Shown: positions 19,688 to 24,324 of the stretch, piece by piece | Layout: each line of letters starts with the position of its first letter | Position numbering within the stretch: position 1 is the stretch's first letter | NCBI RefSeq assembly: GCF_001244545.1 | Contig: NZ_LN852693.1 | Coordinates: 193,750-257,749 of the forward strand | Reading direction: 5' to 3' | Source: Candidatus Stoquefichus sp. SB1 | Lineage (GTDB): Bacteria; Bacillota_I; Bacilli_A; Erysipelotrichales; Coprobacillaceae | DNA: 64,000 nucleotides | The notes under the pieces: generated by a model | The model's input: only the letters and a program-made list of their open reading frames with translations | Told to the model about the DNA's origin: nothing | Database searches by the model: none | Position numbers and translations under genes: made by a program

Positions 19688-20152
19688 ATGTCTAAAGTCA
19701 TTAGTTGGGATCAGTATTTTATGGGAATTGCGAAGTTATCAGCGTATCGTTCTAAAGATCCAAATACTCAAGTTGGTGCATGTATTGTAACACCAGAACA
19801 TAAAATTGTTGGTGTAGGATATAATGGACTGCCTTGGGGTTGTGAAGATAATGAGTTTCCATGGGCAAATAGAGATGGTGATATGTATGATACCAAATAT
19901 CCTTATGTTGTTCATGCTGAATTAAATGCCATCTTAAATAGTACTCAAAAACTACATGGATGTCGTATTTATGTATCTTTATTTCCTTGTCACGAATGTG
20001 TAAAAGCAATTATTCAAAGTGGAATACAGGAAATTGTTTATGAAGATGATAAATATAGTGATACACCTAGTGATAAAGCAGCAAAACGTATGTTGAATGC
20101 GGCTGGAGTACGTTATACAAAAATGGAAAAATTTGATATTGAAATCAAATAG
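19688..20152 (+). CDS. dCMP deaminase
   Basis: A 154-residue zinc deaminase of the ComEB/dCMP deaminase type, making dUMP from dCMP for thymidylate synthesis. Zinc ligands are clear: H76 and catalytic E78 in HAELNAIL, and C101/C104 in PCHECVKAII. The substrate-side block GACIVTPEHKIVGVGYNGLP is typical. It ends the lspA-rluD operon; a terminator overlaps the stop codon. Ribosome site GGAGGTAAGAGG. ComEB in Bacillus is the same enzyme, with no proven role in competence. Confidence 0.9.
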   Translation: MSKVISWDQYFMGIAKLSAYRSKDPNTQVGACIVTPEHKIVGVGYNGLPWGCEDNEFPWANRDGDMYDTKYPYVVHAELNAILNSTQKLHGCRIYVSLFPCHECVKAIIQSGIQEIVYEDDKYSDTPSDKAAKRMLNAAGVRYTKMEKFDIEIK

Positions 20153-20195: not shown

Positions 20196-20222
20196 AATAA
20201 AAAAGAATGGATAGCCATTCTT
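20196..20222 (-). terminator. rho-independent terminator of the RNase HIII-like gene
   Basis: AAGAATGG-ATAG-CCATTCTT (20203-20222); read on the minus strand it is followed by a T run (plus-strand A run 20196-20202). Confidence 0.8.
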
Positions 20223-21138
20223 ATTGATCTTCAATGAGCGCTTTAACTCTTTTGGTATTTGTAAAATTAAGTTTAGCAACCTTCATCAACATCTTTTCGC
20301 CATATTTAGTGGCAATCTTTGCAGCGATAGTATCCACAGCTGTGCTTGTACCTCGACAGAGATTCATTTTTAGACTTTTGGTCATATTTGCATAATACTG
20401 TAGATAGGCATAGCGAGAAAGGATTTCAGCAGCGACAATTGCCATATATTTCTTTTCAGCATCTGATTCAAACATTAAGTCTTTGACAACTATAACTTCA
20501 TTTTTAAGATAGTTAAAATATGTTTTTGGAGAAACAAATTGATTGATCACCTTGACCTTTACATTTTGCTTGACTTTTTGCATTACATTAACTGTAGCCT
20601 GATTGTAAAGCTTTGCTTTAATATTTGCTTGATTGAAACCTTCTTGAACCATTTTGTTATAATGTGAATTATCTAAAATTAATAGACTATAAACCAATTT
20701 GTCTTTAATTAATTTTGCACAATTCACAATATCCTGATTAGAAAGATGAGCCATATCATCAATATTCAATTCTTTTAATAATTCAACATCATCTTCTGTC
20801 ACATAACATGCGACAACACAAATAGGGCCAAGATAGTCAGCTGAACCTGTTTCAGCACATCCAATATGATGAAAAGGGAAAACATCATCAACATTAGATG
20901 TTAAATTTGCGAGTTCTTTCGCTACTTTTTTAGACCAGTGTTTGGCTTCCTGCAAGGCATTTTGTCCGCTTAATTCAACTGTTCCATCAATTTTTGCAAT
21001 GATATCACAACCAATAGCATGCGCTTTAAATATAAGGTTTGTGTCATCAACTGGAACCATTTGGCTATCATAATATTTTTTCATTTTCTCCAATGTACTA
21101 TCTTTCACTTTAAGTATAATTGGTTCCACGATAATCAC
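20221..21138 (-). CDS. RNase HIII-like protein lacking catalytic aspartates
   Basis: A 305-residue protein matching RNase HIII end to end: an N-terminal TBP-like domain, then the RNase H fold, ending KIATKYGEKMLMKVAKLNFT. In active RNase HIII the first catalytic motif is GSDExG and the third is IDQF. Here they read GCAETGSADY (A95 in place of Asp; confirmed as codon GCT) and VINQF (N199 in place of Asp), and the usual DSKKL is DDMAHL. Both aspartates are needed for metal binding in known enzymes, so RNA/DNA hybrid cleavage is unlikely. It may still bind nucleic acid. The frame is fully intact, which argues for a retained non-enzymatic role rather than decay. Confidence 0.8.
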   Translation of the reverse strand: MIIVEPIILKVKDSTLEKMKKYYDSQMVPVDDTNLIFKAHAIGCDIIAKIDGTVELSGQNALQEAKHWSKKVAKELANLTSNVDDVFPFHHIGCAETGSADYLGPICVVACYVTEDDVELLKELNIDDMAHLSNQDIVNCAKLIKDKLVYSLLILDNSHYNKMVQEGFNQANIKAKLYNQATVNVMQKVKQNVKVKVINQFVSPKTYFNYLKNEVIVVKDLMFESDAEKKYMAIVAAEILSRYAYLQYYANMTKSLKMNLCRGTSTAVDTIAAKIATKYGEKMLMKVAKLNFTNTKRVKALIEDQ

Positions 21139-21226
21139 CTCATTATTATTTTAACATAATTTTGTCAATTTTGACAGAACAATTTTCAAATGTTATAATA
21201 ACTAAGTTTATAAGGAGGATTTTATT

Positions 21227-22015
21227 TTGAATTTCCAAATGATTGATCTTATTTTTGTCGTTTTTTTCATATTTATGGCAATTGTTGGCTATATAAAAGG
21301 TTTTGTAACAAGATTATATGATTTTGCAGGGACAATTATTGTTTTGTTTTTATCATATTTTTTGGCAAAACCAATGTCTTCTATTATAATGATATATAAA
21401 TATGATACAACTGATGCTTTTGCATCTATGGTAGGTCAAATGATTAATCAGATCGTTGTTTTTGTTATCTTATTAGTTGTTTTGATGATTATAAAAAAAT
21501 TATTAGGTCTTGCAATTAAACCAGTGTTAAAAGGTTTGATGCAGACATTCTCATTAACTTCTTTTGTAGATAAAGTTTTAGGGTTAATATTAAGTGTTAT
21601 AGAAAGTTTGATTATCGCTTATTTGGTTCTTGTTTTTGCTGTTATTCCTTTTGTGAATAATGGAGCAGCTATAATTCAAGATTCCTTTATAGCAAGTCGC
21701 ATTATTCAATTGGTTCCTGATGTGAGTCAATCTGTCATGGATATGAGTCAGTATTTAAAAACTGATCAGAATACCCAGTTTGATTCTCCTGAAACATTAA
21801 CAAAATTGATGTTATCAGCAATAGATATGAATCTCATTGATAGTCAGCAGGCTGAAAAAATATTATCTGAAAATATTTTGAATCAGCTCAATGAAAAAAA
21901 TATCACTTTAACACCAAAACAAAAACAGCAAATTGAAGTAATTTTAGAAGAATCTGGATATTCCAAAAATGAACTTATGGATATCCTAGGAAAAATAAAT
22001 GTGAGTGGTGAATAA
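21227..22015 (+). CDS. CvpA family membrane protein
   Basis: A 262-residue membrane protein with four hydrophobic helices in the first 150 residues (start IDLIFVVFFIFMAIVGYIKG, typical CvpA/colicin V production family) and a soluble, glutamine-rich tail. TTG 21227 has AAGGAGGA 8 nt upstream and is the probable start; the next ATG (21239) is spaced too far. An extended -10 TGTTATAAT is at 21191-21199. The stop overlaps the mutS2 start (TAATG). The cvpA-mutS2 order (zapA-yshB-polX-mutSB in Bacillus) is conserved in Firmicutes. Confidence 0.85.
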   Translation: MNFQMIDLIFVVFFIFMAIVGYIKGFVTRLYDFAGTIIVLFLSYFLAKPMSSIIMIYKYDTTDAFASMVGQMINQIVVFVILLVVLMIIKKLLGLAIKPVLKGLMQTFSLTSFVDKVLGLILSVIESLIIAYLVLVFAVIPFVNNGAAIIQDSFIASRIIQLVPDVSQSVMDMSQYLKTDQNTQFDSPETLTKLMLSAIDMNLIDSQQAEKILSENILNQLNEKNITLTPKQKQQIEVILEESGYSKNELMDILGKINVSGE

Positions 22016-24324
22016 TGAAAACAATATATGAAACATTAGAAATGAATGAAATCAAACATCAAATCCAAAACTATTGTGCATCTTCTTTAGGAAAGAAGAA
22101 AATTGAGAAATTGGAACTTTTTGATGATATTGATGATTTAAATGAAGCATTAGATAAAGTTGATGAAGCTATGAAATTGGTATCCATTCAAGGGAGAATG
22201 CCGCTTGGTGGATTAAGTGATATTTCACTCTATTTAGAGAAAGCAAATCGGGATGGGATATTGCAAGGTGAAGAACTTTTAAAGTTCCTTAATCATCTAG
22301 AGTGTATTCAAAACGTAAAGAATTATTTATTATCAAGTGAAGTTGAAACAATTTATTTACAAGAGTTAAGTGATGGATTGGTTGAACATCCTCATCTGAT
22401 GAATGAAATCAGAAGATGTATTTTGCCTGATGGTCAGGTGAGTGATCAGGCAAGTCCTACTTTGAGTCATTTAAGAAAGCAAATGAGACAAATTCAATCA
22501 CAGATTCGTTTAAAAATGGATTCTTTGGTCAAAGATTCTCAAGAGATGCTTTCTATTGATCAAATCACAACCAAAAATGATCGTTTAGTATTGCCTGTAA
22601 AAGCAGGATATAAAAGTCAGGTAAGTGGATTAATTCATGCTCAAAGTGCGACTGGACAAACGCTTTATATTGAACCTGAGGTTGTCGTTGGTATGAATAA
22701 TCAATTAAGTGTATATCAAAGTGAAGAAAATGAAGAGATAGCCCGCATTCTTTATGAGTTATCACAAATTGTAAAAGGGCATTATTATCATTTTCGTTTT
22801 AATTTAGAAATTTTAGAAGAACTTGATTTTATTTTTGCAAAGGCACAATATGGTTATTTGCATCACTGTTGTCGTCCAACAGTTGAAGAAAATGGAGAGC
22901 AAGTGACTTTAAAGGAAGCACGTCATCCTCTTATTGATGAGAAGAAAGTGGTAGCAAATGATATTATTTTATCTCAACATCGTATGTTATTGATTAGTGG
23001 AAGTAATACAGGTGGAAAGACAGTAACACTTAAGACCGCTGGATTATTATCTTTAATGGCAATATGTGGAATGCCAGTTCCTTGTTTAGAAGCATGTATT
23101 CCTTTGTTTGATAATATTTATGCTGATTTGGGAGACGAACAGTCAATTGAACAATCGCTTTCAACATTTTCAAGTCACATGATGAAAATTATTGATATTT
23201 TAAAACATGCAACTGATAAGAGTCTGGTTATTTTAGATGAAGTTGGTTCAGGTACTGATCCTCAAGAAGGAGAAAGTTTAGCAGAAGCCATCTTAACGCG
23301 TTTTATTGAAATGGGAACTTTTGTTTTAGCGTCTACACATTATGGAAAATTAAAGACATTTGCTAAAGAACATCCTGAAATTTTAATGGCAGCTGTTTCT
23401 TTTGATTTAGAAGCAATGCGACCAACTTATCATTTGAAACTTGATAGTGTCGGACAATCATATGCAATAGAAATTGCACAATTATTAGGATTGGATCAGC
23501 AAATGATTGAACAAGCTCAAAACTTAAAATTGGCTTCTATGAGTGAACATGAACGTTTAATGGAAGTGTTAGAGAAAAAAGAAGAACAATTATCATTGCA
23601 GCAAATGCAATTGGATGACTTAATGGCCCAAAATCAGAAACTTGAAAAACAGTATCGTCATCAGATTCATCAATTGGATCAGCAAAAAAATGAATTATTA
23701 CAAAAAGCAAAAGATGAGGCTAATTCACTTTTAGAAGAAGCCAAAGAAAATATTGATCTTATTGTTGCATCAATGCAGTCTACTTCTTTAAAACAACATG
23801 AAATTATTCAAGCTAAACATGATTTAGATCAAATGAAATTTATGAATCAAGAACAGGTTGTAAAACAAGAACATGTTTTAAAAGTTGGAGATCATGTCAA
23901 AGTGACAAAAATGAATCGAGAAGGCGATATTATTGAAGTTCTTAAAAACCATATGATTATGGTTTCGCTTGCTGGATTAAATGTGAAATTGCATGAAGAT
24001 GAGGTTGTTTTTATGCACCCTCAAACCAAAGTCAAAAAAGTGAAAAAAGCAAGTGTGAAAAAAACAACTATGAATAAAACAGGAACATATGAAATTAATG
24101 TTATTGGAAAGCGTTATGAAGAAGCAATGGCATTGGTTGATAAGTTTTTAGATGATGCTATTGTTTTAGGATATCCACATGTGCGTGTTGTTCATGGAAT
24201 GGGAACTGGAGCTTTACGTAAGGGAATTAGAAAAATGTTAGATAAGAATAAACATGTTGTCTCTTATCGAGATGGTGGACCTAATGAAGGTGGATTAGGT
24301 GCAACTTTGGTTTATTTTGAATAA
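22015..24324 (+). CDS. mutS2: endonuclease MutS2
   Basis: A 769-residue MutS2 with the core/ATPase region (Walker A ISGSNTGGKTVTLKT near 330, Walker B SLVILDEVGSGTDPQEG, THYGKLKTF), a long glutamine-rich coiled coil (about 500-610), and a C-terminal Smr nuclease domain with VHGMGTGALRKGIRKML near 725. MutS2 opposes homologous recombination and, in Bacillus, acts in ribosome rescue. It overlaps cvpA and uvrC by single bases, so the three are translationally coupled. Length is normal for the family (about 780). Confidence 0.95.
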   Translation: MKTIYETLEMNEIKHQIQNYCASSLGKKKIEKLELFDDIDDLNEALDKVDEAMKLVSIQGRMPLGGLSDISLYLEKANRDGILQGEELLKFLNHLECIQNVKNYLLSSEVETIYLQELSDGLVEHPHLMNEIRRCILPDGQVSDQASPTLSHLRKQMRQIQSQIRLKMDSLVKDSQEMLSIDQITTKNDRLVLPVKAGYKSQVSGLIHAQSATGQTLYIEPEVVVGMNNQLSVYQSEENEEIARILYELSQIVKGHYYHFRFNLEILEELDFIFAKAQYGYLHHCCRPTVEENGEQVTLKEARHPLIDEKKVVANDIILSQHRMLLISGSNTGGKTVTLKTAGLLSLMAICGMPVPCLEACIPLFDNIYADLGDEQSIEQSLSTFSSHMMKIIDILKHATDKSLVILDEVGSGTDPQEGESLAEAILTRFIEMGTFVLASTHYGKLKTFAKEHPEILMAAVSFDLEAMRPTYHLKLDSVGQSYAIEIAQLLGLDQQMIEQAQNLKLASMSEHERLMEVLEKKEEQLSLQQMQLDDLMAQNQKLEKQYRHQIHQLDQQKNELLQKAKDEANSLLEEAKENIDLIVASMQSTSLKQHEIIQAKHDLDQMKFMNQEQVVKQEHVLKVGDHVKVTKMNREGDIIEVLKNHMIMVSLAGLNVKLHEDEVVFMHPQTKVKKVKKASVKKTTMNKTGTYEINVIGKRYEEAMALVDKFLDDAIVLGYPHVRVVHGMGTGALRKGIRKMLDKNKHVVSYRDGGPNEGGLGATLVYFE

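What the first reader, a model, noticed from the sequence alone, without database searches (positions are those of the whole stretch)
20221..21138. Intact RNase HIII-like gene with key catalytic residues replaced
GSDExG is GCAETG (A95) and IDQF is INQF (N199); the DSKKL block is also lost. The frame is full length with its own terminator, so the protein is probably maintained. A non-enzymatic nucleic-acid-binding role is possible.
Basis: partly seen in the sequence, partly recalled or inferred. Interest (0 to 1): 0.6.

Follow-up and report, generated by a model that had tools for sequence, protein, structure and literature searches.

The report
Dead RNase HIII kept by bacterial family
A gut-bacterial family took on a different RNA-cutting enzyme (RNase HI), and its old one (RNase HIII) lost the cutting residues yet is still carefully preserved, so it probably does a new, non-cutting job that nobody has described.

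Summary
The gene at 20221-21138 (-) is the true rnhC (RNase HIII) orthologue: same fold and same place between the dCMP deaminase gene and cvpA-mutS2 as in relatives. It has lost catalytic D97 (A), D202 (N) and the DSK lysine (Bst numbering). This is not one strain's defect: 0 of 40 intact orthologues from its family (Stoquefichus, Kandleria, Sharpea, Thomasclavelia, Faecalibacillus and others) keep the catalytic set; 52 of 52 complete genes checked in the sister family do. The split coincides with RNase HI: every good-quality family genome has an RNase HI, against 1 of 74 sister-family genomes. RNase HII is intact in the window's genome. The dead protein is not decaying: dN/dS is about 0.05 and it is at least as conserved as the active enzyme. 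Catalytic positions drift; 2'-OH-contact residues (E96, G98, D101) and a new SPKT...VIVVKD segment are fixed; the core became more basic; N-domain hybrid contacts are gone. Best reading: a lineage-wide pseudo-RNase HIII, re-purposed after RNase HI took over, probably binding RNA or hybrid without cutting. That binding role is unproven; a protein scaffold is the main rival.

The parts
20221..21138 (-). pseudo-RNase HIII gene (rnhC orthologue with lost active site); most likely translated from 21129
21148..21156 (-). extended -10-like promoter element TGTTAAAAT, similar in relatives
   Evidence: a consensus match, seen again upstream of the gene in most of the 12 relatives printed
21135..21141 (-). 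ribosome-binding site GAGGTGA shortly before the GTG at 21129
20899..21129 (-). N-terminal TBP-like domain (DUF3378); fold kept, hybrid-contact residues (Bst Y46, S48, K50, Q54) replaced
20854..20856 (-). codon of A95: catalytic Asp97 (Bst) replaced by Ala
20836..20853 (-). retained ETGSAD (E96-D101): counterparts of residues that contact RNA 2'-OH groups in Ta-RNase H3
20749..20757 (-). DMA in place of the DSK motif
20542..20544 (-). codon of N199: catalytic Asp202 (Bst) replaced by Asn
20479..20532 (-). SPKTYFNYLKNEVIVVKD (residues 203-220): segment newly near-invariant across the family
20455..20457 (-). codon of E228: fourth carboxylate (Bst E232), kept here but drifting in relatives
20203..20222 (-). 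intrinsic terminator of the gene
19688..20152 (+). dCMP deaminase-like gene, conserved neighbour (locus context)
21227..24324 (+). cvpA and mutS2, divergent neighbours; same arrangement in both families (locus context)

Best explanation
This is the native RNase HIII gene turned into a pseudoenzyme in the ancestor of its bacterial family. Shown by sequence: RNase HI is present throughout the family (with a hybrid-binding domain in those examined) and nearly absent from the sister family; the rnhC gene stayed in place, lost its catalytic set on one long branch, then evolved slowly. Inferred: RNase HI took over hybrid removal, which freed rnhC from catalysis but not from a second function. Most likely mechanism (inferred): the RNase H core docks on RNA or RNA/DNA through its retained ribose-contact residues and a more basic surface, without binding the two metal ions needed to cut, and so shields, marks or delivers that nucleic acid; the newly fixed SPKT...VIVVKD segment contacts a conserved partner. 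Split confidence: maintained pseudoenzyme about 0.9; nucleic-acid binding as its working mode about 0.5.
For: Orthology: same locus in both families, TIGR00716 match, AF2 model pLDDT 89.5 with best PDB hits Bst RNase HIII. Loss: the signature D97-E98-K132-D202-E232 is DEKDE in 30 of 30 top-scoring and 22 of 22 complete low-scoring sister-family genes, and in 0 of 40 family genes and 0 of 5 extra copies. D-to-N at the third carboxylate is inactive in Tm RNase H2 (PMC3025331); the four carboxylates form the active site of Ta-RNase H3 (PMC4132731). Swap: RNase HI in 36 of 36 good-quality family genomes and 1 of 74 sister-family genomes; the window genome's copy carries the Cauli_VI hybrid-binding domain and intact D-E-D-D residues, as do four relatives read by eye. 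Maintenance: dN/dS 0.052 against 0.092 rluD, 0.109 mutS2, 0.351 cvpA; at matched divergence as conserved as active RNase HIII or more. One fully supported stem of length 1.33, then short branches. Binding mode: E96, G98, D101 fixed; core net charge +6.5 to +7.7 against +1.6.
Against: No biochemistry. N-domain contact residues, second Gly of GxG and the pocket His are lost, and the N-domain itself is gone in the Thomasclavelia/Faecalibacillus branch, so specific hybrid binding is doubtful. The retained E, G and D may be structural. The charge shift is one evolutionary event, so its p-value overstates the support. The order of RNase HI gain and catalytic loss is not resolved.
Confidence: 0.6

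Rival explanations
1. Protein scaffold: the RNase H fold survives only as a protein-interaction module (for example on RNA polymerase, the replisome or another RNase H), and nucleic-acid binding is lost.
For: Newly fixed residues SPKT...VIVVKD, H159, N172, Y248; N-domain hybrid contacts lost and the N-domain deleted in one branch, where a short N-terminus with a shared MN-INMH-like stretch remains. RNase HII is found docked in an E. coli transcription-coupled repair complex (PDB 7uwe among the fold matches).
Against: The ETGSxD ribose-contact counterparts are fixed in nearly all copies and the core became more basic. No partner identified.
Confidence: 0.28
2. Altered or weak nuclease: the protein still cuts, with other metal ligands or only with help, or the Thomasclavelia/Faecalibacillus branch (D97, E98, K132, E232 kept, D202N) keeps trace activity.
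For: E98 kept in 39 of 40; most of the Thomasclavelia/Faecalibacillus branch lacks only D202 among the five residues.
Against: The same D-to-N change abolishes activity in Tm RNase H2; catalytic columns 97, 132, 202 and 232 change 5, 14, 8 and 8 times on the tree, and all 31 non-family rows are DEKDE; N-domain also lost in that branch.
Confidence: 0.08
3. Decaying redundant gene after acquisition of RNase HI.
For: RNase HI/HIII redundancy is documented (PMC1950709); N-domain lost in one branch.
Against: dN/dS 0.05-0.15, 41 of 43 genomes retain it, conservation at or above that of the active enzyme.
Confidence: 0.02

Closest known systems
RNase HIII / RNase H3 (TIGR00716; Bst 2d0a, Ta 4py5)
   Same: Fold, domain layout, locus, general sequence; scores above NCBIfam's cut-off for ribonuclease HIII
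   Different: Catalytic D97 and D202, DSK Ser and Lys, second Gly of GxG, pocket His and N-domain hybrid contacts lost; a new near-invariant segment
B. subtilis-type RNase HI without hybrid-binding domain (no activity, coexists with active RNase HIII; PMC1950709)
   Same: A non-catalytic RNase H kept beside an active one
   Different: Mirror image: here HI has intact residues and HIII is dead, and this is fixed across a family
Engineered catalytically inactive RNase H (D-to-N mutants such as Tm RNase H2 D107N)
   Same: Same substitution at the third carboxylate
   Different: Natural, long-standing, and other hybrid contacts have changed too

Membership tests
RNase HIII (rnhC orthologue) | TIGR00716 equivalog match above cut-off | tested here: met
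   170.1 bits, cut-off 161.2
RNase HIII (rnhC orthologue) | Ancestral locus and phylogenetic position | tested here: met
   Between dCMP deaminase and cvpA-mutS2 in both families; family and sister family are separate supported clades
RNase HIII (rnhC orthologue) | TBP-like N-domain plus RNase H core | tested here: met
   DUF3378 just over its cut-off (27.8 vs 27), RNase_HII, AF2 model and Foldseek; N-domain absent in one branch of relatives
RNase HIII (active enzyme) | Four catalytic carboxylates D, E, D, E | tested here: not met
   A, E, N, E here; complete in 0 of 40 family genes
RNase HIII (active enzyme) | DSK motif (Lys described as absolutely conserved) | tested here: not met
   DMA here
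RNase HIII (active enzyme) | GxG motif and N-domain hybrid contacts | tested here: not met
   GSA; Bst Y46, S48, K50, Q54 replaced by K, D, T, S
RNase HIII (active enzyme) | Cleavage of RNA/DNA hybrids | not testable with these tools
   Needs purified protein

The most novel reading that the evidence does not exclude
A new, family-wide non-cleaving RNA or R-loop binding factor derived from RNase HIII, important for growth in these gut bacteria, which protects or positions RNA/DNA hybrids that RNase HI and HII would otherwise remove.
Probability: 0.25. Interest if true: 0.8.

Novelty: new variant of a known kind. Interest (0 to 1): 0.6.

Why it matters
A 2007 survey of 353 genomes found that RNase HI with a hybrid-binding domain never coexists with RNase HIII and proposed that one of the redundant pair is removed. 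This family shows a third outcome: the redundant catalytic activity was lost but the protein was kept under strong selection. That implies RNase HIII has, or can gain, a non-catalytic function, which can be tested in culturable gut bacteria. It also means that automatic annotation as ribonuclease HIII is probably wrong for a whole family.

Tried and rejected
Pseudogene or strain-specific mutation: rejected by selection and family-wide sharing. Sequencing error: rejected, shared by independent assemblies. Replacement by a foreign paralogue: disfavoured by the unchanged locus (the tree has only one distant outgroup, so it does not settle this alone). Top-score bias in the sister-family sample: tested by pulling the lowest-scoring sister-family genes; all 22 complete ones are canonical. 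Missing RNase HI in genome G018: a protein search found it. Phosphate-pocket Tyr/Gln as a lost residue: dropped, the aligned column is Val/Ile in the active sister family too. GC content as cause of the charge shift: low-GC sister-family members are not more basic. Literature: no description of a natural inactive RNase HIII found in the open library; subscription papers were not searched. Not done: a survey of other orders for independent losses, and mapping of conserved residues on 3D coordinates (the tools return none).

Full report
Observation. The gene at 20221-21138 on the minus strand is intact and matches RNase HIII by profile, sequence and fold. Residues A95 and N199 stand at catalytic Asp97 and Asp202 of Bst RNase HIII, and the DSK motif is DMA. 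E96 and E228 keep the other two carboxylates. A conserved GAGGTGA just before the GTG at 21129 makes that the likely start, so the protein is about 302 aa; residue numbers here count from the GTG at 21138. A hairpin with a T tract at 20222-20203 follows the stop, and promoter-like, ribosome-site and terminator sequences are nearly identical in Stoquefichus massiliensis.

The rest of the RNase H set. The genome has a canonical RNase HII (GLDEAGRGP, DSKQL, SDA, KGD; [quoted passage not shown] which residues are catalytic in RNase HI is from my own knowledge). So hybrid removal need not depend on the protein studied here.

Distribution. 41 of 43 genomes of the window's family hold the orthologue; named members are Stoquefichus, Longibaculum, Massilimicrobiota, Kandleria, Sharpea, Eggerthia, Beduini, Thomasclavelia and Faecalibacillus, which I take, from memory, to be the GTDB family Coprobacillaceae. 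One gene (genome G001) has a frameshift; mutS2 also matches in two pieces there, so assembly error is likely. None of 40 aligned genes carries the full set D97-E98-K132-D202-E232. In the sister family, 30 of 30 top-scoring genes do, and so do all 22 complete genes among the lowest-scoring ones. The gene lies in the same place in both families.

The enzyme swap. RNase HI occurs in 35 of 36 good-quality family genomes by profile, and the 36th (G018) has it by protein search. In the order-wide sample, 1 of 74 sister-family genomes has a match, and its RNase HIII is canonical (L124). Kochiwa and colleagues (PMC1950709) reported that RNase HI with this hybrid-binding domain was never found together with RNase HIII and proposed that one of the pair is removed. 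Here both genes are present, but the second is no longer a functional copy of the first.

Selection. Against S. massiliensis dN/dS is 0.052 (rluD 0.092, mutS2 0.109, cvpA 0.351); against four other relatives it is 0.06-0.15, mostly below rluD, lspA and mutS2 and similar to the deaminase. At equal divergence of the neighbouring deaminase, the dead protein is as conserved as the active enzyme of the sister family or more (0.64 vs 0.57; 0.64 vs 0.61; 0.82 vs 0.62). The tree has one fully supported stem of 1.33 changes per column leading to the family, then short branches. The catalytic columns change at least 5 (97), 14 (132), 8 (202) and 8 (232) times on this tree, all on the family side, since all 31 other rows are DEKDE. 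A burst followed by slow evolution, with free drift at catalytic positions, is what a change of function predicts.

What was kept and lost. In the Ta-RNase H3 complex (PMC4132731), E79, E84 and the GxG backbone contact ribose 2'-OH groups; their counterparts E96, D101 and G98 are fixed (39 or 40 of 40), while the second Gly drifts. The DNA-side His (Ta H263; Bst H295) is Asn in 38 of 40. N-domain contact residues Y46, S48, K50 and Q54, near-invariant in the sister family, are replaced (matched to Ta contacts by me from the paper's text), and the N-domain is absent in the Thomasclavelia/Faecalibacillus branch. Newly fixed are S203-T206, N209, V215-D220, H91-I92, H159, N172 and Y248. The core gained about five net positive charges; neither GC content nor the neighbouring deaminase shows the same trend, but this is a single evolutionary event.

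Function. That catalysis is gone is inferred from the lost metal ligands; the same D-to-N change in T. maritima RNase H2 has no activity (PMC3025331). That the protein is maintained is shown by selection. That it binds RNA or hybrid without cutting is the most economical reading of the retained ribose contacts and basic core, at about even odds; a protein scaffold is the main rival. I cannot name its partner.

Novelty. I found no description of a natural, lineage-wide inactive RNase HIII in the open library. It is a new variant of a known kind (a pseudoenzyme) with a plausible evolutionary cause and clear tests.

Noticed in passing
L121:4624-5316 (-), also L044, L045, L047, L048: Faecalibacillus-type genomes carry a second, even more degenerate copy without N-domain (CYETGS or CCDTGS). 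In L121 it starts where a Crp/Fnr-like regulator gene ends, and it falls far below the rnhC cut-off (97 bits).
   Followed up: partly
L120:3461-3600, L122:4560-4695, L027, L031, L035, L028, L030: In the Thomasclavelia/Faecalibacillus branch the N-domain is replaced by a short N-terminus with a shared stretch (MNMNV...MN-INMH), possibly a linear binding motif.
   Followed up: partly
L016 and L049 (genome G001): Frame break in the pseudo-RNase HIII of one single-contig genome; mutS2 beside it also matches in two pieces, which suggests assembly indels rather than gene death.
   Followed up: partly
L026 / L117:3736-4662 (genome G018): An early-branching member keeps D97 and the DSK-position Lys but has Asp at 98, Glu at 202 and Tyr at 232: a different pattern of loss.
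   Followed up: partly
21227-22015: cvpA next door evolves fast (dN/dS 0.28-0.62 against relatives) in contrast to its slow divergent neighbour.
   Followed up: no
genomes G062, G072, G086, G152, G165, G186: A few sister-family genomes show no RNase HIII match by this profile (only a weak match of the RNase HII kind, or nothing); whether they have another replacement was not checked.
   Followed up: no
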